DNA of 64,000 bases, from the NCBI GenBank assembly GCA_022785125.1, contig JALFRA010000021.1, forward strand, positions 62,001 through 126,000, read 5' to 3'. Below are positions 39,302-50,613 of the stretch, piece after piece (position 1 is the first letter of the stretch; every line of letters begins with the position of its first letter). The stretch is from Clostridiales bacterium (GTDB lineage Bacteria; Bacillota; Clostridia; Oscillospirales; Oscillospiraceae). The translations under genes and the position numbers were made by a program. Under the pieces are notes generated by a model. It was given only the letters and a program-made list of their open reading frames with translations, was not told the origin of the DNA and ran no database searches.

Positions 39302-39330
39302 TTGAAATCCCGGATAAGACGGGGTATAAT
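39302..39330 (+). promoter_or_regulatory. Promoter of the aromatic operon
   Basis: -35 TTGAAA (39302-39307), 17-bp spacer, consensus -10 TATAAT (39325-39330). It lies 26 bp before the leader ORF's ribosome binding region. Confidence 0.82.
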
Positions 39331-39362
39331 GTCTCCAACCTGGAAAAGTGAGGCGTACAGGC

Positions 39363-39455
39363 ATGACCAAAAATTCCCTCACAACTGCATCCTTCCTGTT
39401 TTCCTATGGCTGGGCTCGATTTATGGGCGCCGGCTTTTTTGGCATGGGGAAATAG
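39363..39455 (+). CDS. Candidate aromatic-rich leader peptide of the aro operon (30 residues)
   Basis: ATG at 39363, stop TAG at 39453-39455; GTGAGG nine bases upstream. The 30 residues include five Phe (11, 13, 20, 25, 26), Tyr15 and Trp17, so seven of thirty codons are aromatic. It follows a strong promoter and precedes a pausing-type hairpin and a terminator, with aroF next. This is the arrangement of trp/phe-type attenuation, where stalling at aromatic codons prevents the terminator from forming. The peptide itself would have no other function. No family match is known to me. Confidence 0.7.
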   Translation: MTKNSLTTASFLFSYGWARFMGAGFFGMGK

Positions 39456-39475
39456 TAGGATGGAGTGAATGGGTG

Positions 39476-39489
39476 GGCCCTATGGGGCC
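39476..39489 (+). promoter_or_regulatory. Small hairpin between leader ORF and terminator
   Basis: GGCCC, loop TATG, GGGCC. It is in the position of a pause or alternative hairpin. In addition GGCGCC inside the leader ORF (39425-39430) could pair with the terminator's 5' arm as an antiterminator; that pairing is inferred by eye. Confidence 0.45.
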
Positions 39490-39513
39490 TGGTATTACCT
39501 TGTAACATAGACA

Positions 39514-39554
39514 GGGCGCTCATTGATTTCATCAATGGGCGCTTATTTTTTTTG
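39514..39554 (+). terminator. Attenuator terminator upstream of aroF
   Basis: 13-bp stem including three G-U pairs (39514-39526 with 39532-39544, loop TTTCA) followed by ATTTTTTTTG. It sits between the promoter and the aroF RBS (GGAAAGGAAG, 39558-39567), so it can only act as an attenuator. Confidence 0.82.
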
Positions 39555-39575
39555 ACTGGAAAGGAAGCGTGCGAT

Positions 39576-40595
39576 ATGGTAGTCGTTATGAAGCCCGGCA
39601 CCCGTCAGGCGGATATCGAGCATTTGGCAGAACAACTCAAGCAGCTGGGCCTGGAGGTAGGCGTCACCAACGGCGTGGGCTGCACCATCCTGGGTCTGGT
39701 GGGCGATACCACTGCCGTGGATATGGACAAGATCTCCATTAACCCCAACGTGGAGCGGGTCATGCGGGTGCAGGAGCCCTACAAGAAGGCCAACCGCAAG
39801 TTCCATCCCGAGGACACGGTGGTCACCGTGGGCAATGCCAAGATCGGCGGCGGCAACTTCTCCGTCATTGCCGGCCCCTGCTCGGTGGAGAGCCACGAGC
39901 AGATCTGCGCCGTGGCCGAGGACGTGAAGCGCTCCGGCGCTGCCATGCTGCGAGGCGGCGCCTTCAAGCCCCGTACCTCCCCCTACTCCTTCCAGGGCAT
40001 GGGGGCTCCCGGCCTGGATCTGCTGGTGGAGGCCCGGGCCAAGACCGGTCTGCCCATTGTCACCGAGATCATGGACCCCCGAATGGCCGACCTCTTCGAG
40101 CGGGAGGTGGATGTGGTCCAGGTGGGCGCCCGCAATATGCAGAACTTTGAGCTGCTCAAGGAAGTGGGCAAGATGAGCAAGCCCATCCTGCTCAAGCGGG
40201 GCCTGTCCAACACCTATGAGGAATGGATCATGTCCGCCGAGTATATTATGGCCGAGGGCAATGAGAACGTGATCCTGTGCGAGCGGGGGGTGCGCACCTT
40301 TGAGACCTACACCCGCAACACCCTGGACGTGTCCGCCATCCCCGCCATCAAGCAGATGAGCCACCTGCCCGTTATCGTGGACCCCTCCCACGCCGCCGGG
40401 ATGTATTGGATGGTGGAGCCCCTGGCCCTGGCCGCCGTGGCGGCGGGCGCCGACGGCCTCATCATCGAGGTCCACAACGATCCCGCCCACGCCAAGTGCG
40501 ACGGCCAGCAGTCCCTTACCCCCCAGAAGTTTGACGCCCTGATGCACAAGGTGGGTATGCTGGTTGACCTGGTGGAGAAGAAACTGGTAAGATAA
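39576..40595 (+). CDS. aroF: 3-deoxy-7-phosphoheptulonate synthase (DAHP synthase) with regulatory domain
   Basis: 339 residues. The first ~70 residues (MVVVMKPGTRQADIEHLAEQ...) form the ferredoxin-like regulatory domain of the Thermotoga/type I-beta class, which binds Phe or Tyr for feedback. The catalytic barrel follows: GNFSVIAGPCSVES, RGGAFKPRTSPYSFQG, QVGARNMQNFELL, KRGL and DPSHAAG. It commits PEP and erythrose-4-phosphate to the shikimate pathway. It is the first gene of the operon and lies behind the attenuator. An upstream in-frame ATG inside the terminator is rejected because the RBS fits 39576. Confidence 0.96.
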   Translation: MVVVMKPGTRQADIEHLAEQLKQLGLEVGVTNGVGCTILGLVGDTTAVDMDKISINPNVERVMRVQEPYKKANRKFHPEDTVVTVGNAKIGGGNFSVIAGPCSVESHEQICAVAEDVKRSGAAMLRGGAFKPRTSPYSFQGMGAPGLDLLVEARAKTGLPIVTEIMDPRMADLFEREVDVVQVGARNMQNFELLKEVGKMSKPILLKRGLSNTYEEWIMSAEYIMAEGNENVILCERGVRTFETYTRNTLDVSAIPAIKQMSHLPVIVDPSHAAGMYWMVEPLALAAVAAGADGLIIEVHNDPAHAKCDGQQSLTPQKFDALMHKVGMLVDLVEKKLVR

Positions 40596-40712: not shown

Positions 40713-41777
40713 ATGAAAACCCTCACCGTCGCCCTGCCGGGGCGGGAATATGATATCCTGATCCAGCGGGGCCTGCTGGACCAGGCGGGAGCATACTGCC
40801 GGAAGGTCCTGCCCCGGGCGGGCAGGCTCTTTGTGGTCACCGACTCCAACGTGGCTCCTCTCTATGGGGCCCGGCTGAAGGCCAGTCTCACCGCCGCCGG
40901 GTTTTCCGTGGCAGTCCATGTCGTGCCCGCCGGAGAGGCCTCCAAGTGTGCCGGTCAGCTGGCCGGGCTGTGGGAGGCCATGATGGCCACCGGACTCACC
41001 CGCACCGATGCCGTCATCGCTCTGGGCGGCGGCGTGGTGGGGGACCTGGCGGGCTTTGCCGCCGCCACCATCCTGCGGGGGGTGGACTTTGTCCAGATCC
41101 CCACCACCCTCCTTTCCCAGGTGGACTCCTCTGTGGGAGGCAAGGTGGCCATCGACCTCCAGGCGGGGAAGAATCTGGCCGGGGCCTTCTGGCAGCCCAA
41201 GCTGGTGCTCATGGACCCGGATACTCTGGATACCCTGCCCGATTCCACCTTTGCCGATGGTATGGCGGAGGTGGTCAAGTACGGCTGCATTCTGGACAGT
41301 TCTTTCTTCGATTTTCTGGCCGCCCGGCCCAGCCGTAAGGAAATTGTGGCGGAAATTGAACACGTTTTGTATACCTGCTGCAATTTAAAACGAATTGTTG
41401 TGGAGGAGGACGAGCGGGACACGGGAAAACGGATGCTGCTCAACTTCGGCCACACCCTGGGTCACGCCTATGAGAAGGCGGGCCACTATGAGAAGTGGAC
41501 CCACGGCCAGGCGGTGGCTGCCGGTATGGTGAAGGCTGCCAAACTGGGGGAAGCCCTGGGCATCACCCCGGCGGGAACGGCGGATCGCATTGCCGCCCTT
41601 CTTACCCCTCTGGGCCTGCCGGTGGAGATCTCTTGTACGGCGGAGGAGTATGCCGCCGCCATCGGTCTGGACAAGAAGGGGGCGGGAGATGACATCAGCG
41701 TGATCCTGCTGGAACAGATGGGCCATGCCATCCCCCACAAAATGCCCAAAGCCGCACTTCTGGAGGAACTGAAATGA
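40713..41777 (+). CDS. aroB: 3-dehydroquinate synthase
   Basis: 354 residues. NAD-binding GGGVVGDLAGFAAA and PTTLLSQVDSSVGGKVAID are the family hallmarks, and zinc-site residues lie in FGHTLGHAYE and HGQAVAAGM. It converts DAHP to 3-dehydroquinate, step two. GAGAAGGAGTG sets the start; an in-frame extension upstream runs through the repeat and is unlikely. The stop overlaps aroA by four bases. Confidence 0.96.
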   Translation: MKTLTVALPGREYDILIQRGLLDQAGAYCRKVLPRAGRLFVVTDSNVAPLYGARLKASLTAAGFSVAVHVVPAGEASKCAGQLAGLWEAMMATGLTRTDAVIALGGGVVGDLAGFAAATILRGVDFVQIPTTLLSQVDSSVGGKVAIDLQAGKNLAGAFWQPKLVLMDPDTLDTLPDSTFADGMAEVVKYGCILDSSFFDFLAARPSRKEIVAEIEHVLYTCCNLKRIVVEEDERDTGKRMLLNFGHTLGHAYEKAGHYEKWTHGQAVAAGMVKAAKLGEALGITPAGTADRIAALLTPLGLPVEISCTAEEYAAAIGLDKKGAGDDISVILLEQMGHAIPHKMPKAALLEELK

Positions 41778-43000
41778 ATGTGACCATTACGCCCACCCCG
41801 CTGGCGGGAGCGGTGACCCCGCCTCCCTCCAAGAGCCAGGCCCACCGGCTCATCATCGCCGCCGCCCTGTCCGACGGCTTCTGCAAGCTGTCCAACGTGG
41901 ATCTGTCGGAGGATATCCAGGCCACCCTGCGGTGTATGCGAACCCTGGACGCCGACGCCTCCGCCGACGGCACCATCATCCGGGGGGCCGATCTGGTGGA
42001 CGGCCACGAGGAGCCCGCCCCCGAGGTGATGGACTGCGGGGAGAGCGGCTCCACCCTCCGCTTTCTCATTCCGGTGGCTCTGGCCCTCAAGGGGGGCGGC
42101 AAGTTCACCGGCCACGGGCGGCTGATGGAGCGGCCCCAGGAGCCCTACTTCGCCATCTTTCGGGAGAAGGGCATCTTCTACGAACAGAAGGACGGGGTGC
42201 TGACGGTGCGGGGCAAGCTGCCCCCCGGTATTTACACCCTGCCGGGCAACGTGTCCTCCCAGTTCATCACCGGCCTGCTGTACGCCCTGCCTCTGCTGAA
42301 GGGGGACAGCGAGATCAGGCTCATCACCGATCTGGAGAGCCGGGGCTATGTGGATATGACTCTGGATGCTCTGGAGCAGTTTGGGGTAAAGGCGGAGTAC
42401 GACGGAACCCGCACCTTCCATGTGCCGGGGAACCAGTATTACCAGCACCGGGATCTGGCCATTGAGGCCGACTGGTCCAACGCCGCTTTCTGGTACGGAG
42501 CGGTGAGCCTGGGGTGCCAGGTGGACATCCAGGGGCTCAATGCCTATTCTGTACAGGGTGATATGCGTATCGTGCCCTATTTTACGAAGCTGCAGGGGGA
42601 GGGGCCGGTAGACCTGGACGTGAGCCAGTGCCCCGATTTGGTGCCCCCTCTGGCCGCTATGGCCGCCCTGCGGGCTGGGCAGACTACCCGCATCGTCAAT
42701 GCCGGGCGGCTGCGGATCAAGGAGAGCGACCGGCTGGCCACGGTGACCGAGGTGCTCAACGACCTGGGGGCCCAGGTGGAGGAATATGAGGACCATCTGG
42801 TGATCTGTGGGAAGGAGAAGCTGGCGGGGGGCGTTACCGTCTCCGGCCACAACGATCACCGCATCGCCATGATGGCGGCCATCGCCGCCATCCGGTGCGA
42901 GAAACCGGTGACCATCACCGGAGCGGAGTGCGTCAAAAAGTCCTATCCCCGGTTCTGGGAGGACTATGAGGCCCTGGGCGGGCGGCTCAGCTGGGCGTAG
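41774..43000 (+). CDS. aroA: 3-phosphoshikimate 1-carboxyvinyltransferase (EPSP synthase)
   Basis: 408 residues, slightly short but complete. Substrate motifs are PPSKSQAHR (about 17-25), DCGESGSTLRFL (PEP site) and RIKESDRLATVTEVL. It transfers enolpyruvate to shikimate-3-phosphate. The sequence around the PEP loop, GESGSTLRF, resembles class II-like enzymes. It is translationally coupled to aroB by ATGA. The stop codon lies inside the REP-like palindrome. Confidence 0.95.
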   Translation: MNVTITPTPLAGAVTPPPSKSQAHRLIIAAALSDGFCKLSNVDLSEDIQATLRCMRTLDADASADGTIIRGADLVDGHEEPAPEVMDCGESGSTLRFLIPVALALKGGGKFTGHGRLMERPQEPYFAIFREKGIFYEQKDGVLTVRGKLPPGIYTLPGNVSSQFITGLLYALPLLKGDSEIRLITDLESRGYVDMTLDALEQFGVKAEYDGTRTFHVPGNQYYQHRDLAIEADWSNAAFWYGAVSLGCQVDIQGLNAYSVQGDMRIVPYFTKLQGEGPVDLDVSQCPDLVPPLAAMAALRAGQTTRIVNAGRLRIKESDRLATVTEVLNDLGAQVEEYEDHLVICGKEKLAGGVTVSGHNDHRIAMMAAIAAIRCEKPVTITGAECVKKSYPRFWEDYEALGGRLSWA

Positions 43001-43048
43001 GGGCGGCCTTTATGGCCGCCCGCGGGCGACCGCAAGGGTCGCCCCTAC
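42997..43048. repeat. REP-like cloverleaf palindrome between aroA and aroC
   Basis: The outer stem GTAGGGGC/GCCCCTAC (42997-43004, 43041-43048) encloses two hairpins, GGCGGCC/GGCCGCC and GGGCGACC/GGGTCGCCC. A related degenerate piece lies in the aroF-aroB gap. Confidence 0.8.
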
Positions 43049-43071
43049 ATGGGGATGGAGGATAGATAAGT

Positions 43072-44115
43072 ATGCGACACATGATTTTTGGTGAATCCCA
43101 CGGCCCTGCCATCGGCGTGGTGCTGGAGGGGGTGCCCGCCGGGCTGGAGCTGGATCTGGAACAGGTACAGCGGGAGCTGGACCGGCGGAAGCCGGGCCAG
43201 GACCCCACCGCCACCGCCCGGAAGGAGAGCGACCTGGTGGAGGTGCTCTCCGGGGTGTTTGAGGGTAAGACCACCGGGGCCCCGCTGGCCATGGTGATCC
43301 ACAACTCCGACCAGCACTCCAAGGACTATGAATCCATCCGGTACACCCCCCGGCCCAGCCACGGGGATTATGCCGGGTTTATCAAGAGCAGGGGATGCCT
43401 GGACTATCGGGGCGGCGGCCACTTCTCCGGCAGGCTTACCGCCCCCCTGGTGGCCGCCGGTGCGGTAGCCAAGCAGGTGCTGGCGGGCCGGGGCGTTCAG
43501 GTAGGGGCCCATATCAGCTCCATCTACGGCATCTGCGACGCAGCCCTGGAGGACCCGGAGGACCTGAAAGCTGTGGCGGCCAAATCCTTCCCGGTGCTGG
43601 ACGACAGCAAGGGGGAGGAGATGCGCCAGGCCATTCTGGAGGCCAGGGAGGAGCAGGACAGCGTGGGAGGCGCCATCGAGTGCGCCGTCACCGGCCTGCC
43701 CGCCGGATTGGGTGCCCCCGATTTCGGCTGCAATGTGGAGGGCATCTTCTCCCAGTATCTCTTCGCCGTACCCGCGGTGAAGGGCGTAGAGTTCGGCGCC
43801 GGGGTGGCCTTCTCCCTCATGCGGGGCAGCGAGGCCAACGACCCCTTTGCCGTGGAGGATGGCAGGGTGGTCACCAAGACCAACCACGCCGGGGGAATCA
43901 ACGGCGGCATCACCAACGGAATGCCGGTGACCTTTGAGGTCACCATCCGACCCACCCCCTCCATCTCTCTGCCTCAGGAGAGTGTGGACCTGCGGACCGG
44001 TGAGGAGACGGAAATTGAGATCAAGGGCCGTCACGATCCCTGCATCGTCCCCCGGGCGGTGCCGGTGATCGAGGCGGCGGCGGCTCTGGCCGCCTGCGCT
44101 GTATTGGGCATCTAA
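43072..44115 (+). CDS. aroC: Chorismate synthase
   Basis: 347 residues. Family signatures: GESHGPAIGVVLEGVPAGLE near the start, the RPSHGDYAG and RGGGHFSGRLTAP loops that bind FMN and EPSP, and NHAGGINGGITNGMPV. It needs reduced FMN and yields chorismate. GGAGGAT precedes the ATG. The ~70 bp before it are mostly the REP-like element. Confidence 0.96.
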   Translation: MRHMIFGESHGPAIGVVLEGVPAGLELDLEQVQRELDRRKPGQDPTATARKESDLVEVLSGVFEGKTTGAPLAMVIHNSDQHSKDYESIRYTPRPSHGDYAGFIKSRGCLDYRGGGHFSGRLTAPLVAAGAVAKQVLAGRGVQVGAHISSIYGICDAALEDPEDLKAVAAKSFPVLDDSKGEEMRQAILEAREEQDSVGGAIECAVTGLPAGLGAPDFGCNVEGIFSQYLFAVPAVKGVEFGAGVAFSLMRGSEANDPFAVEDGRVVTKTNHAGGINGGITNGMPVTFEVTIRPTPSISLPQESVDLRTGEETEIEIKGRHDPCIVPRAVPVIEAAAALAACAVLGI

Positions 44116-44129
44116 AAGGAGCGATGGAT

Positions 44130-45293
44130 ATGACGGAACTGGAGCAATATCGGCAGGAGATCGACCGAATCGACGGGGAACTGGTGCGCCTGTTCCTGGA
44201 GCGGATGGCGGTCACCGGTAAGGTGGGGGAATACAAGCAGCGGGAGGGCATCCCGGTGCTGGACGCCCACCGGGAGAAGCAGGTCATTGCCGCCAAGACG
44301 GCCCTCACCGATGATCCTGCCCGCAAGGCGGACCTGGCGGCTCTCTATGAGAGCATCATGGCCATCTCCCGCCGCCAGCAGCGCCATCTGGTGAAGGAGG
44401 GGGCGGAGGACCCGGGCTACGCGGCCTACCTGGCCGACCTGGCCAGAGTGCGTCAGCCGGTGGCCCATCCCCGGGTGGCCTACCAGGGGGAGCCGGGCTG
44501 CTACAGCGAGGAGGCCACCGCAGGCTTCTTCGGCGGGGACGTGGACAGCGTGGGCAAGCCCTGGTTCAACGATGTGTTCGCCGCGCTGGAGAAGGGTGAG
44601 GCGGACTACGCCATGCTGCCGGTGGAGAACTCCTCCACCGGGTCCATCCGTCAGGTATACGATCTGATGGCCCAGTATCATTATTATATTGTGGGGGAGT
44701 GGCAGGTGCCGGTGGAGCACTGCCTGGCCGCTCTGCCTGGGGTGGAACTGTCCCAGATCACCACCGTCTACTCCCATGAGCAGGGGCTGATGCAGAGCGA
44801 ACAGTATCTGGACGCCCATCGGGACTGGAAGCGGGTGCCCACCCTGGACACCGCCGGTTCCGCCAAGCTGGTGGCGGAGAAGGGGGACCCCACCGCCGCC
44901 GCCATCTGCTCCAAGCGGGCCGCCCAGCTGTACGGTCTCAACATTTTGGCTGAGCGGGTCAACCACAACACCATGAACCACACCCGGTTCGCAGTGGTGT
45001 CCCCGGTGCCCGAGCTGCGGCAGGAGCGCAACAAGATCAGCGCCGTATTCCGCCTGCCCCACCAGAGCGGCTCCCTCCATGAGATCCTCACCATCTTCGC
45101 CGTGCAGGGGCTTAACCTGCTGAAGATCGAGTCCCGGCCCATCCCCGGACGGGGGTTTGAGTACCTCTTCTTCCTGGACTTCACCGGCGACCTCACCGCC
45201 CCCGGCATGGACGGGGTGCTCCACGAGCTGAGCCAGCTGGCCACCGAAGTGCGGATTCTGGGCAACTACAAGGCCTGGGAGGAGCAGGCATGA
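44130..45293 (+). CDS. pheA: Bifunctional chorismate mutase / prephenate dehydratase (P-protein)
   Basis: 387 residues from the second ATG: AAGGAG ends 8 bases before it but only 2 before ATG 44124. The AroQ-type chorismate mutase covers 1-90 ([20 protein letters not shown]), prephenate dehydratase about 108-285 ([31 protein letters not shown]), and an ACT domain the end ([25 protein letters not shown]) for Phe feedback. The product is phenylpyruvate. This makes Phe the direct output of the operon and supports Phe codons in the leader as a control. Confidence 0.95.
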
Positions 45294-45784
45294 AGGACAA
45301 CGTGGTACTCATCGGCATGATGGGCTGCGGCAAGTCCACGGTGGGGAGTCTGCTGGCCGAGGCGCTGGGCTTTGTCTTCGTGGATACCGACCAATACATA
45401 GAGGCGGCCCTGGGCCGGTCCATCCCCGACGTCTTTGCCGAGGAGGGGGAGGCCTTCTTCCGGGACCGGGAGCTGGGCGCGGCGGAGGAACTGGCCCGGC
45501 GGAAGAGTCAGGTCATTGCCTGCGGCGGCGGCCTGCCCACCCGGGCGGATTCCATCGCTTCCCTGAAATACAGCGGTACCGTGATTTTTCTCCGGCGGGA
45601 CCCGGGGGAGATCTACGACAATGTGTCCATGGGCGGCCGCCCTCTGGGCCAGCAGGGGAGAGAGGCCTTTCTGGAGCGGTATGCCGGACGGGCGCCCATC
45701 TATCTGGAGTGGGCCGACCATGTGGTGGATGTACAGGCCGACCCGGCGGAGACCGTCCGGCGGATTTTGGAGGTGCTGAAATGA
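45290..45784 (+). CDS. aroK: Shikimate kinase
   Basis: 164 residues, with P-loop [19 protein letters not shown] (about 8-26), [16 protein letters not shown] and [18 protein letters not shown]. It phosphorylates shikimate at O3. Four-base overlaps with pheA upstream and aroQ downstream show coupled translation. Confidence 0.95.
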
Positions 45785-46227
45785 AATTCCTCATCATCAA
45801 CGGGCCCAACCTGAACCTGCTGGGCAAGCGGGAGCCGGGCATTTATGGGGAGAATACCTATGAGAGCCTGTGCCAGCGGCTGCGCGACTTTGCCGCCGCC
45901 CACGGCTCTGAGGCCCACTGCTTCCAGTCCAACCATGAGGGGGCCATCATTGATGCCATCCACGCCGCCGACGGGGTGTATGACGCCATCGTCATGAATC
46001 CCGGGGCCTTTACCCACTACTCCTACGCCATTCTGGACGCCCTGAAGGCGGTGGATGTGCCCTGCATCGAGGTCCACATCTCCAACGTCCACCAGCGGGA
46101 GGAGTTCCGGCACAAGAGCGTCACCGCCCCCGCCTGTGTGGGTCAGATCTGCGGCCTGGGGCTGTATGGCTACGAGGCGGCAATATCCTATTTTCTGGAA
46201 AAGAGGGGCGCGGGACGCCATGGGTGA
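45781..46227 (+). CDS. aroQ: Type II 3-dehydroquinate dehydratase
   Basis: 148 residues. [18 protein letters not shown] with the active-site Arg/Tyr loop, [29 protein letters not shown] and VEVHISN-type [14 protein letters not shown] are all present. It converts dehydroquinate to dehydroshikimate. It starts inside the aroK stop (ATGA) and its own end overlaps the hydrolase start by 8 bp. Confidence 0.96.
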
Positions 46228-47031
46228 GCGGCAGACCCGGAGCGTCTGCTCCGGCGGATGTACAGTGGTCTATGACCGCCAGGAGGGGAAGGGACCGGAA
46301 GTGGTCCTTCTCCACGGCTATGGGGTAGACCGCACCATGTGGGCGCCCCAGCTGGCCGCCCTGACGGGGCGGACGGTGCTGAATGTGGATATCAGAGGCC
46401 ACGGAGCTTCCCGGCCCTGCCCGGAGTTTTCTATTCCTCAGACTGCGGAGGACCTGCGGGCCATTCTAATACAGGAAGACTGCCGGACTCCGGTGCTGGT
46501 GGGCCTGTCCATGGGGGGCTATGTAGTCCAGGAGTATGCCTGGCGGTTTGGCGGCTGTGCCGGGTACCTGGTCGCAGGGGCCACGCCCATTCTTTTGGAC
46601 TGTTACCGCAGGTGGGAGCGGGTGGGGCTGCGGAGCTCTGCCGCCCTGCTGGCGGTCTGGCCCTGGGGGGACTCAAGTCCGCCATGGTCCGTGCCTGCGC
46701 TTGTACCCAAACGGGACGGGCGGCGGTGGAGACCATGATGAATTGCCTGGACCGGTGTGAGTTTCTTCGGGGTTGGCGGGGGGTGGCCCAGTGCCTCCAC
46801 CCGGAGCCTGGCTTCCGGTTTGACGCCCCGCTGCTGGTGTGCTGCGGGGAGCGGGACCGGACGGGCACCATTGCTCGACACATGGCTGACTGGCACACGG
46901 GGTACCCGGAGGCGGAGATATGCATCCTGCCGGGTGCGGCTCATGTGGCCAATCTGGATGCCCCCGCGGACTTTGATGCCTTGCTGACGCGCTTTCTGGA
47001 GCGCTGTACTGGAAAGGGAGGTGTGGTATGA
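46220..47031 (+). pseudogene. Alpha/beta hydrolase split by a frameshift in a G6 tract
   Basis: The first frame (46220-46738) gives the hydrolase start: VVLLHGYGVDRTMWAPQLA oxyanion region and nucleophile GLSMGG. Near 46665-46670 (TGGGGGGACTC) coding continues in another frame, giving LKSAMVRACACTQTGRAAVE, PLLVCCGERDRTG and the catalytic-His region GAAHVANLDAP, ending at 47031. One extra G in the tract would restore a single ~270-residue protein. Either an inactivating one-base deletion, a sequencing error in the homopolymer, or slippage. The resemblance is to enol-lactonase-like hydrolases; the role in the aromatic operon is unclear. Confidence 0.75.
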
Positions 47032-48419
47032 AGAACGTTCCCTTGCCCCGCATTGGGATGCGGGTCATCAAGACAGCTGTGGCGGTGATGGTGTCCTATG
47101 CGCTGTTCCTTCCCTTTGGCCTCACCTATCGGGAGGAACTGGGGGGCGTGCTGGGCCAGATGGGACCGCTGTACGCCTGTATCGCCTGCATCATCTGCAC
47201 CCAGAGCACCCTGGGCCAGACCTTCCGCCAGGGCATTTCCCGGCTCATCGGTGTCATCGTGGGCGGCGCCTTGGGTACCGCCACTCTGCTGCTGGGGCCG
47301 GCCCTGGACCATTTCTGGCTCAAGACCATCATTCTTGGCGTGGTATGTGTGGCGGGAGTGTGGCTGTGCCTGCTCATCAAGCGGCCCACCGCCTGCGGTA
47401 TGGCCTGCATTCTGCCCTGTGTCATTCTCATCACCGGTGTCACCGGTGTGACCCGGTATTACTACGCCGCCGCCCGCATGATCGAGACCATTGTGGGATT
47501 GCTGGTGGCTCTGGCCATCAACGCAGCCCTCCCCGACCACCGGCCGGAGGGTGAACGGGGAGGGATGGATATGAATGTGGAACTGAAAAACACCACCCGC
47601 AAGCTGTGCGTCATTGGGGACCCGGTGGCTCACTCCAAGTCCCCTCTGATCCAGAATACCATGCTCAAGGCCCTGGGTCTGGACTATGTGTATCTGTGTC
47701 AGCCGGTGCCCCGGGGGCAATGCAGGGAATGGCTGGAGTGTGCCAGATTTGCCGGATACGCCGGGTTCAACGCCACCATGCCCCACAAGGAGGAACTGGT
47801 GCCCCTGTTGGATGAGCTGGACGAGGATGCAAAACTCATCGGGGCGGTGAACACCGTCTGCATCCGGGAGGGTAAGACCTACGGCTACAACACCGATGGC
47901 GAGGGCTTCCTCCGGGCACTGGCCGACGAGGGGATCGACCCGGCGGGCAAGCGGGTGACGGTACTGGGAGCGGGAGGCGCCGCTAAGGCGGTATGTCTCA
48001 AGCTGGCTCAGGCCGGGGCGGAGGTCACTGTATGCAACCGTACCCTCGACAAGGCTCAGACCATCTGTGACCACGACCCGAAGCACCTCCATCCCGAGGG
48101 CTTTGGGCCGGAGGAACTTGCCCGGGCGGCGGCGGAGTGCGATCTGCTGGTGAATTGCACCTCTTTGGGGATGGCGGACACCGCCGGGCAGTTTGCCGAC
48201 TTCTCTTTCCTGGATCATCTGAAGCCCGGCGTGCCGGTGGTGGATCTGATCTACATTCCCGCTGAAACCGAACTGCTCCGCCAGGCCAAAAAGCGGGGCC
48301 ACAAGCCGATCAATGGGCTGGGCCTGCTGGTCAACCAGGCGGTGCTGGCTCTGGAGCACTTTACCCAGACGTCTATTGACGCTGCCGAGATGAAAAAGCG
48401 CATTGCCGAAGTGCTATAA
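47028..48419 (+). CDS. aroE: Fusion: aromatic-acid-exporter-like membrane domain + shikimate dehydrogenase
   Basis: 463 residues in one frame. Residues 1-172 have six or so hydrophobic spans and match the ArAE/FUSC-like small membrane proteins (MKNVPLPRIGMRVIKTAVAV, FRQGISRLIGVIVGGALGT). Residues 182-463 are a complete AroE: SKSPLIQNTM, NATMPHKEEL, NTDGEGFLRAL, GAGGAAKAVCLKLA, NGLGLLVNQA. AroE reduces dehydroshikimate with NADPH. Between them GGGGAGGG (47557-47564) precedes an in-frame ATG at 47571, so AroE may also be made alone (282 residues). Either a true membrane-tethered fusion or a lost stop codon. Confidence 0.9.
   Translation: MKNVPLPRIGMRVIKTAVAVMVSYALFLPFGLTYREELGGVLGQMGPLYACIACIICTQSTLGQTFRQGISRLIGVIVGGALGTATLLLGPALDHFWLKTIILGVVCVAGVWLCLLIKRPTACGMACILPCVILITGVTGVTRYYYAAARMIETIVGLLVALAINAALPDHRPEGERGGMDMNVELKNTTRKLCVIGDPVAHSKSPLIQNTMLKALGLDYVYLCQPVPRGQCREWLECARFAGYAGFNATMPHKEELVPLLDELDEDAKLIGAVNTVCIREGKTYGYNTDGEGFLRALADEGIDPAGKRVTVLGAGGAAKAVCLKLAQAGAEVTVCNRTLDKAQTICDHDPKHLHPEGFGPEELARAAAECDLLVNCTSLGMADTAGQFADFSFLDHLKPGVPVVDLIYIPAETELLRQAKKRGHKPINGLGLLVNQAVLALEHFTQTSIDAAEMKKRIAEVL
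47557..47573 (+). promoter_or_regulatory. Internal ribosome binding site and start for stand-alone AroE
   Basis: GGGGAGG (47557-47563) lies 7 bases before ATG 47571, in frame with the fusion, immediately ahead of the AroE domain. Confidence 0.6.
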
Positions 48420-50310: not shown

Positions 50311-50613
50311 AATCAAGCGCCTGTTTGGGGCGCAGTCTGCGATGATGCGGGAGATTGCTCAGCAATGAGGTAACTTCCGCGGAGTATGTCCGAGCTAGAA
50401 TCGGGCGGCTGAGGGATCTGTACACGGCGTATATCGCCATGTATGGGTAAAACCGGCCTGCTTGTGCCGGTTTTCTTCATGTCACGGAGTGATACGCACG
50501 GAAACGTGTACTGAAATCTCTCACCGTACGAAGCGAGGAAAGACACCGCGCTTTTAGCCCCGTGGACCCGGCGAAAGCGCACCACTTCGTATGTTTAAGG
50601 AGGAACAAACACC
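50311..50613 (+). promoter_or_regulatory. Long structured 5' leader of rpsJ with an attenuator-like hairpin
   Basis: About 295 nt of transcribed leader without a convincing gene. AAACCGGC (50450-50457) pairs with GCCGGTTT (50466-50473), followed by TCTTC, a terminator-like shape. Two very short ORFs near 50342 and 50387 have no strong RBS. Ribosomal operons often carry a leader bound by one of their own products; which protein would act here I cannot tell. Confidence 0.5.

What the first reader, a model, noticed from the sequence alone, without database searches (positions are those of the whole stretch)
39302..39576. Aromatic-rich leader peptide and terminator ahead of the whole shikimate operon
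Seen: promoter with 17-bp spacing, a 30-codon ORF with five Phe, one Tyr and one Trp, a small hairpin, then a U-run terminator 22 nt before aroF. Known: trp and phe operons of proteobacteria use such leaders; Bacillus uses TRAP instead, and clostridia commonly use T-boxes. Inference: this is ribosome-mediated attenuation sensing all three aromatic amino acids, controlling an entire aroF-to-aroE operon, which I have not seen described for this group.
Basis: partly seen in the sequence, partly recalled or inferred. Interest (0 to 1): 0.8.

Follow-up and report, generated by a model that had tools for sequence, protein, structure and literature searches.

The report
Phe-rich leader attenuator before shikimate operon
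A short aromatic-rich peptide gene and a switchable RNA hairpin sit ahead of the genes that make aromatic amino acids in this gut bacterium and many of its relatives, and probably let stalled ribosomes turn those genes on when phenylalanine runs short.

Summary
In detail: promoter, 30-codon ORF (5 Phe, 1 Tyr, 1 Trp), terminator and aroF lie where stated. Related genomes show a conserved attenuator. Of 149 aroF upstream regions, 88 carry an aromatic ORF with an in-frame CGN-TTY core (69 non-redundant). Terminator, antiterminator and the hairpins made by the ORF pair better within than between genomes (0 of 2000 permutations each); direct capture of region 2 by region 1 is only marginal (96 of 2000). 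Leader Tyr share follows the operon: 0.83 for aroF2-tyrA, 0.47 for other operons with tyrA next, 0.27 without. Elsewhere in the class, 43 of 67 aroF loci have leader plus terminator, against 0 in five shuffled sets; of 40 searched, 2 have a T-box there. Ribosome-mediated attenuation is well supported by comparison, untested by experiment. Sensing of all three amino acids is not: this genome lacks trpE, leader Trp does not track trpE, and Phe dominates. The mechanism is known; I found this instance and its spread nowhere in print, except a related uORF candidate ahead of aroF (uORFC-13-1, PMC8632094).

The parts
39302..39330 (+). promoter, TTGAAA-17-TATAAT
   Evidence: a similar TTG...TATAAT pair stands at the same place in the relatives visible in the cut output
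39350..39353 (+). GAGG, likely Shine-Dalgarno of the leader ORF
   Evidence: GAGG or a similar motif precedes the ATG in most of the 35 rows
39363..39455 (+). leader peptide ORF, 30 codons
39376..39382 (+). region 1 (CCCTCAC, inside the ORF): predicted partner of region 2 before strand 3 is made; covariation marginal
39385..39392 (+). left strand of outer ORF helix (CTGCATCC)
39393..39440 (+). control codons: Phe 39393, Phe 39399, Tyr 39405, Trp 39411, Phe 39420, Phe 39435, Phe 39438
39408..39434 (+). core hairpin inside the ORF, around the CGA-TTT codons (39417-39422)
39458..39466 (+). right strand of outer ORF helix (GGATGGAGT), just after the stop codon
39468..39475 (+). region 2 (AATGGGTG): antiterminator strand
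39514..39527 (+). region 3: 5' strand of terminator (holds CGCTCATT 39517-39524, the partner of region 2)
39531..39553 (+). region 4 and T-run of the terminator
39576..40595 (+). aroF, DAHP synthase (first regulated gene)
40713..45293 (+). aroB, aroA, aroC, pheA (chorismate mutase/prephenate dehydratase)
45290..46227 (+). aroK, aroQ
47028..48419 (+). exporter-like (FUSC/ArAE) domain and AroE in one ORF

Best explanation
This is a ribosome-mediated transcription attenuator of the trp/phe-leader type. RNA polymerase starts near 39337 (inferred from the promoter) and a ribosome begins the 30-codon leader. Inferred steps: when charged tRNA-Phe (and tRNA-Tyr at the interchangeable positions) is plentiful, the ribosome reaches the stop codon and leaves; the ORF then folds into a long hairpin that ends next to region 2 (AATGGGTG) and brings region 1 (CCCTCAC) to it, and strands 3 and 4 form the terminator before aroF. 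When Phe is short the ribosome stalls inside the ORF, the hairpin cannot form, region 2 pairs with strand 3 instead, and transcription runs on into aroF-aroB-aroA-aroC-pheA-aroK-aroQ-aroE. The second aroF of the same genome, followed by tyrA, has its own Tyr-rich leader. Shown by comparison: conserved ORF, aromatic codons, ORF hairpin, 2:3 and 3:4. Weakly supported: capture of region 2 by region 1. Not shown: any expression change.
For: An aromatic ORF with the in-frame CGN-TTY core is found in 88 of 149 aroF upstream regions, 69 non-redundant. In 64 of the 69 aligned on the core, seven codon columns are aromatic in 67 to 100% of sequences; over these columns 262 Phe, 53 Tyr, 50 Trp and 83 other residues. 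Own versus swapped pairing, n=64: terminator -20.4 versus -13.7, antiterminator 2:3 -11.1 versus -10.3, outer, middle and core ORF helices all better in own pairs, each 0 of 2000 permutations; three other stretches tested against strand 3 as controls gave 1468, 829 and 1943 of 2000. The outer ORF helix alone, without regions 1 and 2: -8.8 versus -6.6, n=62, 0 of 2000. Pair counts on 35 sequences for core hairpin and terminator: 92.2% of cells paired, 14 of 22 pairs with changes on both sides, shuffled mean 6.4. Folding only the RNA downstream of the ribosome, 63 leaders: median P(2:3) 0.04 with no ribosome, 0.00 with a ribosome at the stop codon, 0.15 to 0.93 with the ribosome between codons -8 and +10. 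Leader composition fits the operon.
Against: No expression data. Region 1 with region 2 tested alone is marginal: -6.7 versus -6.3, 96 of 2000 permutations; mean P(1:2) is 0.34, and 0.20 for the window. If RNA may pair across the ribosome, the model shows little effect: mean P(2:3) 0.36-0.48 for codons -8 to +8 against 0.35 with no ribosome. For the window itself P(2:3) is 0.51 with no ribosome and 0.95 with a ribosome at the stop codon, so its terminated state rests on ribosome release. Stalls at its Tyr (0.03) and Trp (0.24) do not favour antitermination. Third codon positions are not more variable than the others (0.90, 1.03, 0.95 bits), so the usual coding signature is hidden by RNA constraint. 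Ten examined loci show no recognisable leader by my rules (L016, L023, L029, L099, L104, L107, L108, L115, L119, L134; L099 and L107 have contigs of the same length as L016 and L029 and are probably repeats). For the Tyr-rich aroF2 leaders the antiterminator test was negative (n=13, 1056 of 2000 permutations). All permutation tests ignore phylogeny.
Confidence: 0.84

Rival explanations
1. The leader senses all three aromatic amino acids equally: stalls at Phe, Tyr or Trp codons each cause read-through.
For: One Tyr and one Trp codon lie among the control codons; Trp is present at column -2 in 48 of 64 leaders.
Against: This genome has no match to PF04715, TIGR00564 or PF00425. Trp at column -2 is unrelated to trpE: 8 of 24 genomes with it versus 4 of 12 without it there. 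Six of those 12 have a Trp elsewhere in the leader; counted by any Trp it is 10 of 30 versus 2 of 6 (with leaders; 11 of the 36 genomes miss the 90%-complete, 5%-contaminated mark). TGG lies inside the covarying ORF hairpin, which can explain its conservation. In the window's folding model stalls at Tyr and Trp give P(2:3) of 0.03 and 0.24, against 0.52-0.96 at Phe.
Confidence: 0.15
2. The leader is a nascent-peptide arrest sensor: the conserved GWARF.G.GFF peptide itself stalls the ribosome in response to a free aromatic metabolite, rather than starved tRNA.
For: The core is more conserved than an ordinary attenuator needs: CGA in 63 of 64, TTT in 64 of 64, Gly at +5 in 62 of 64 (the pattern that chose the core required CGN-TTY).
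Against: The same nucleotides form a covarying hairpin, which can explain the conservation; Phe and Tyr swap freely at columns -4 and +6; other operons carry different aromatic peptides that track gene content.
Confidence: 0.07
3. A small-molecule riboswitch or protein-binding leader; the ORF is incidental.
For: The leader RNA has conserved structure. A candidate riboswitch of another kind has been reported upstream of an aroFBC-tyrA operon in Enterococcus faecium (PMC4448216, passages).
Against: No Rfam family reaches its threshold here. Aromatic codons are kept or exchanged for one another in an open frame in dozens of genomes, and the Tyr share follows tyrA.
Confidence: 0.05
4. Translation over the leader opens the hairpin without amino-acid sensing.
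For: Any translation of the ORF would disturb the hairpin.
Against: Does not explain aromatic enrichment or its match to operon content.
Confidence: 0.04

Closest known systems
pheL/trpL-type ribosome-mediated attenuators of enterobacteria (recalled, general knowledge)
   Same: short leader ORF with control codons of the regulated pathway, alternative helices, terminator before the first structural gene
   Different: no Rfam match; here the control codons lie inside a hairpin made by the ORF itself, and the operon is the shikimate pathway plus pheA
uORFC-13-1 motif (PMC8632094; section 26 read, other passages seen)
   Same: uORF with Phe codons, promoter, terminator, always upstream of aroF; attenuation proposed
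   Different: 24 representatives reported only from Acholeplasma and environmental sequences; its alignment was not available to me, so identity with this family could not be tested; section 26 mentions one further base-paired element and describes no antiterminator test
T-box leaders (RF00230)
   Same: sense tRNA charging and control a terminator ahead of amino-acid genes in Firmicutes; found directly before aroF in Massilimicrobiota (L150), an Erysipelotrichaceae MAG (L145), an Acholeplasmatales MAG (L147), L210, and below Rfam's score in L214
   Different: no T-box match on the contigs of either aroF of this genome; mechanism uses translation, not tRNA binding
His leader peptides in Firmicutes (PMC2965389 passages; PMC9413887 section 8) and the Leu attenuator of S. 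aureus ilv-leu (PMC5794164 passages)
   Same: ribosome-mediated attenuation in Firmicutes; PMC2965389 describes it as replacing T-boxes
   Different: different amino acids and genes
candidate riboswitch gbs2033 (PMC4448216 passages)
   Same: cis-regulatory leader reported upstream of an Enterococcus aroFBC-tyrA operon
   Different: proposed there as a riboswitch for aromatic amino acids or precursors; not compared here

Membership tests
ribosome-mediated transcription attenuator (trp/phe leader type) | translatable leader ORF with ribosome-binding site between promoter and terminator | tested here: met
ribosome-mediated transcription attenuator (trp/phe leader type) | clustered, conserved control codons for products of the regulated genes | tested here: met
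   met for Phe and Tyr, not for Trp
ribosome-mediated transcription attenuator (trp/phe leader type) | intrinsic terminator before the first gene (3:4) | tested here: met
ribosome-mediated transcription attenuator (trp/phe leader type) | antiterminator (2:3) exclusive with terminator | tested here: met
   n=64, 0 of 2000 permutations
ribosome-mediated transcription attenuator (trp/phe leader type) | 1:2 helix that sequesters region 2 when the leader is not occupied | tested here: inconclusive
   the ORF hairpin beside region 2 covaries (0 of 2000), but region 1 with region 2 alone is marginal (96 of 2000); predicted by folding, weakly in the window
ribosome-mediated transcription attenuator (trp/phe leader type) | read-through rises on starvation for the control amino acid and needs leader translation | not testable with these tools
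   no expression data held
T-box (RF00230) | match to the T-box model upstream of aroF | tested here: not met
Rfam 15 families, amino-acid leaders included | match at the curated score | tested here: not met
   all matches in the leader are far below their cut-offs, e.g. RF04312 trpB motif, 21.6 bits against 59, E 0.88
uORFC-13-1 motif | consensus sequence and structure of the published motif | not testable with these tools
   text read; figure and supplement not held

The most novel reading that the evidence does not exclude
Leader-peptide attenuation at aroF is one old, inherited system of the class Clostridia rather than many separate inventions. Its control codons are retuned between Phe and Tyr as tyrA joins or leaves the operon and after aroF duplication, and it is exchanged for a T-box in a few lineages. 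Supporting but not proving: 43 of 67 loci from other families carry leader plus terminator; 16 of 44 leaders outside the own family share a spaced aromatic-Gly motif, chosen after looking at them, against at most 4 in 1000 shuffles; Tyr share tracks operon content.
Probability: 0.35. Interest if true: 0.72.

Novelty: new member of a known kind. Interest (0 to 1): 0.56.

Why it matters
General accounts assign aromatic amino-acid control in Firmicutes to T-boxes and TRAP (recalled). Here the entry point of the shikimate pathway in many gut Clostridia appears to be run by classical leader-peptide attenuation, with a leader for each DAHP synthase paralogue whose codon make-up matches the branch it feeds. 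It gives a natural series for asking how sensor codons evolve with operon content, and how T-boxes and leader peptides replace one another at the same gene.

Tried and rejected
First idea, that ORF nucleotides AUUUAUGGGCGCC pair with the terminator 5' strand as the antiterminator: set aside, since the stretches of the ORF 3' and 5' of the core showed no own-versus-swapped signal with strand 3 (1468 and 829 of 2000), while region 2 after the stop codon did; the 3' stretch tested starts 14 nt after the CGA codon and so hardly covers that sequence, which was not tested separately. Folding with a ribosome mask that let RNA pair across the ribosome showed little effect of ribosome position (means 0.36-0.48 for codons -8 to +8, 0.35 with none, 0.18 at the stop); folding only the RNA downstream of the ribosome showed one. 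I prefer the second but the choice is an assumption. Antiterminator test for the Tyr-rich aroF2 leaders: negative, n=13. Shared CTC in class-wide terminators: 17 of 39 versus 4 of 22 other hairpins, too few to claim. The second aromatic-rich ORF of the window (21858, minus) was judged chance. Ten literature searches listed no paper recognisable as an account of this leader in Oscillospiraceae or of class-wide aroF attenuation. Searches showed 20 of 141 and 10 of 150 papers; six papers were opened (PMC8632094, PMC2965389, PMC2494555, PMC9413887, PMC5794164, PMC4448216), none whole; only open-licence PMC papers are held.

Rows dropped: one search pools regions of which some come from the same or nearly the same genome in two collections; one search used 64 of 69 leaders (L041, L044, L045, L136, L137 out of register, so their core match is probably fortuitous); one search used 63 of 64 (L008 has no 5-pair 2:3 match); one search left out loci without a qualifying leader, without an operon call, with under 200 nt upstream, or with near-identical peptides, and its group without tyrA includes L147, whose upstream element is a T-box; one search left out L196 (99 nt upstream) and L181 (own family); one search compared 19 of 23 genome pairs (4 lack a leader at one of the two genes), and the G014 aroF2 ORF among the 19 is doubtful. 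In one search the aroF start of L033 was misplaced and it was not scored.

Full report
What is there. The window holds, in order, a sigma-70-like promoter (39302-39330), a 30-codon ORF MTKNSLTTASFLFSYGWARFMGAGFFGMGK (39363-39455), an intrinsic terminator (39514-39544 plus T-run) and aroF from 39576. The genes that follow are aroB, aroA, aroC, pheA, aroK, aroQ and an ORF that joins an exporter-like domain to AroE. Between aroF and the end of aroE the pattern scan lists only two weak plus-strand terminator-like sites (40808 and 45353) and two weak plus-strand promoter-like sites (40564 and 42522). The window is G000:C27:62001-126000 of a 2.97 Mb genome; the closest named aroF records are Flavonifractor (98% for a Candidatus Flavonifractor MAG), though the tool may leave out the genome itself.

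Conservation. aroF was found in 159 of 200 genomes of the family at E up to 1e-60. I read the upstream DNA of family loci and of 80 named loci, some of which repeat the same genomes. Of the 149 upstream regions pooled, 88 carry an aromatic ORF with an in-frame CGN-TTY core; 69 remain after removing those at or over 95% identity. The other 61 include aroF2-tyrA genes and other operon kinds with different leaders, and contigs that end too early. Ten loci show no leader by my rules (L016, L023, L029, L099, L104, L107, L108, L115, L119, L134; two are probably repeats). In the codon table of 64 leaders the columns relative to the CGA codon are aromatic as follows: -8 72%, -6 67%, -4 72%, -2 88% (48 Trp), +1 100%, +6 78%, +7 94%. 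Phe and Tyr replace one another at -4 (29 and 17) and +6 (27 and 21). The CGA codon is kept in 63 of 64 and TTT in 64 of 64; the search pattern required CGN-TTY, so only the choice of A and of T is informative.

RNA. Terminator 3:4: own pairs -20.4 kcal/mol against -13.7 for swapped ones, 0 of 2000 permutations as good. Antiterminator 2:3, between AATGGGTG-like sequence (43-54 nt after the CGA codon in 57 of 63) and CGCTCATT-like sequence in the terminator's 5' strand: -11.1 against -10.3, 0 of 2000; three other stretches used as controls gave 1468, 829 and 1943 of 2000. Three helices inside and around the ORF also covary (0 of 2000 each). Telling cases are L022 (CTCATC with GATGAG) and L040 (GCTCAC with GTGAGC), where strand 3 and region 2 change together. 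On a 35-sequence alignment the core hairpin and terminator have 92.2% of cells paired and 14 of 22 pairs with changes on both sides, against 6.4 in shuffles; slid controls pair 23-49% of cells. Before strand 3 exists, region 2 is predicted to pair chiefly with the stretch 36-45 nt before the CGA codon (CCCTCAC in the window, region 1), with a summed mean probability of about 0.30. Tested alone, region 1 with region 2 is only marginal (-6.7 against -6.3, 96 of 2000), while the outer ORF helix beside it is clear (-8.8 against -6.6, 0 of 2000, n=62). None of these tests corrects for kinship.

How it most likely works. The control codons lie inside the hairpin that the ORF forms, and region 2 follows directly after that hairpin. 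A ribosome inside the ORF prevents the hairpin. Folding only the RNA downstream of a ribosome gave, over 63 leaders, median antiterminator probability 0.70-0.75 for codons -10 to -8, 0.67 and 0.52 for -7 and -6, 0.15-0.46 for -5 to -2 and 0.69-0.93 for -1 to +10, against 0.04 with no ribosome and 0.00 with the ribosome at the stop codon, which covers half or more of region 2 in 41 of 63. For the window itself the values are 0.95, 0.52, 0.03, 0.24, 0.96, 0.95 and 0.95 at its seven aromatic codons in order, 0.51 with no ribosome and 0.95 at the stop codon, so the window's terminated state depends on the ribosome leaving and is less clear-cut than in its relatives. If pairing across the ribosome is allowed, ribosome position hardly matters. 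These are equilibrium folds of a crude model.

What it senses. Phe is the main signal by count and by operon (pheA inside, no tyrA found, no trp genes among the named ones). The genome has no match to PF04715, TIGR00564 or PF00425 at 99.76% completeness, so it should not make anthranilate. Among 36 genomes with known leaders, trpE was found in 8 of 24 with Trp at column -2 and 4 of 12 without it there; six of the 12 have a Trp elsewhere, and by any Trp the counts are 10 of 30 and 2 of 6 (leaders). The same genome has a second aroF (G000:C29, 64% identical) followed by tyrA, with the leader MLKRTGYGYGYYRCYYFSGVSACP. Over leaders filtered for near-identity the mean Tyr/(Phe+Tyr) is 0.83 for aroF2-tyrA (n=13), 0.47 for the other operons with tyrA next (n=43) and 0.27 without (n=43); Mann-Whitney p 2.5e-11 for tyrA versus none, uncorrected for kinship. 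Within genomes the aroF2 leader has the larger Tyr share in 19 of 19 compared, of 23 listed; one of the 19 (G014) rests on a doubtful ORF.

Spread. In 67 aroF loci from other families of the class, 43 have an aromatic-rich leader with Shine-Dalgarno motif followed by a terminator; five rounds of dinucleotide shuffling gave 0 of 67 each. Some of the 24 misses have such an ORF but fail the strict motif rule (for example L198, L207, L208). Families are unequally sampled. For operons with tyrA next the antiterminator test is positive (n=43, 0 of 2000); for aroF2 leaders it is not (n=13, 1056 of 2000). T-boxes directly before aroF were found in L145, L147 and L150 of 11 loci. Of 40 of the 67, L210 has one at Rfam's score and L214 a weak one in the permissive search (42 bits against 93); the T-boxes of L237 lie behind pheA. 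In the window's genome the T-box model has 14 matches, 6 over the cut-off, none on the contigs of the two aroF genes; eight were looked at and precede ileS, valS, an acetolactate synthase, glyS, a 2-isopropylmalate synthase, tyrS, a TrpB-like gene and one gene without a match.

Compared with what is known. The mechanism is classical attenuation (E. coli trp and phe, recalled). In print, leader peptides in Firmicutes are described for his genes (PMC2965389, passages; PMC9413887, section 8 and passages) and for ilv-leu of S. aureus (PMC5794164, passages). T-boxes are described for tyrosine biosynthesis in the B. cereus group (PMC2494555, passages), and a candidate riboswitch upstream of an Enterococcus aroFBC-tyrA operon (PMC4448216, passages). 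The nearest record is the uORFC-13-1 candidate upstream of aroF (PMC8632094, section 26 read), reported from Acholeplasma and environmental sequences; whether it is the same element I could not test. Ten searches of the open library listed no description for this family or class (two lists were capped); subscription papers and preprints were not searched.

Verdict.

Noticed in passing
window 47028-48419 (+): One ORF of 463 aa joins an aromatic-acid-exporter-like domain (FUSC_2, ArAE_1) to shikimate dehydrogenase. The frame also runs on past the exporter domain in L083 and L084 up to the end of the held DNA.
   Followed up: partly
window 46217-47031 (+): Between aroQ and the AroE ORF an alpha/beta-hydrolase-like gene seems to be split over two frames; only the first piece matches Pfam. 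Not mended.
   Followed up: no
G000:C29:38096-39103 (L002, L072): Second aroF followed by tyrA, with its own Tyr-rich leader.
   Followed up: yes
L078, L079 (own genome): T-boxes precede tyrS and a TrpB-like gene, while trpE was not found: some Tyr and Trp functions are under T-boxes in a genome whose aroF genes have leader peptides.
   Followed up: partly
L145, L150: Each of these loci carries two aroF copies and two T-boxes, each T-box just before an aroF.
   Followed up: no
window 50334-50411 (+): S10-Clostridia ribosomal protein leader (Rfam RF03136); known element.
   Followed up: no
L182-L249 and L136, L143, L152: 16 of 44 leaders share a spaced aromatic-Gly motif (chosen after seeing them), at most 4 in 1000 shuffles; hints at common descent of the attenuator.
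   Followed up: partly
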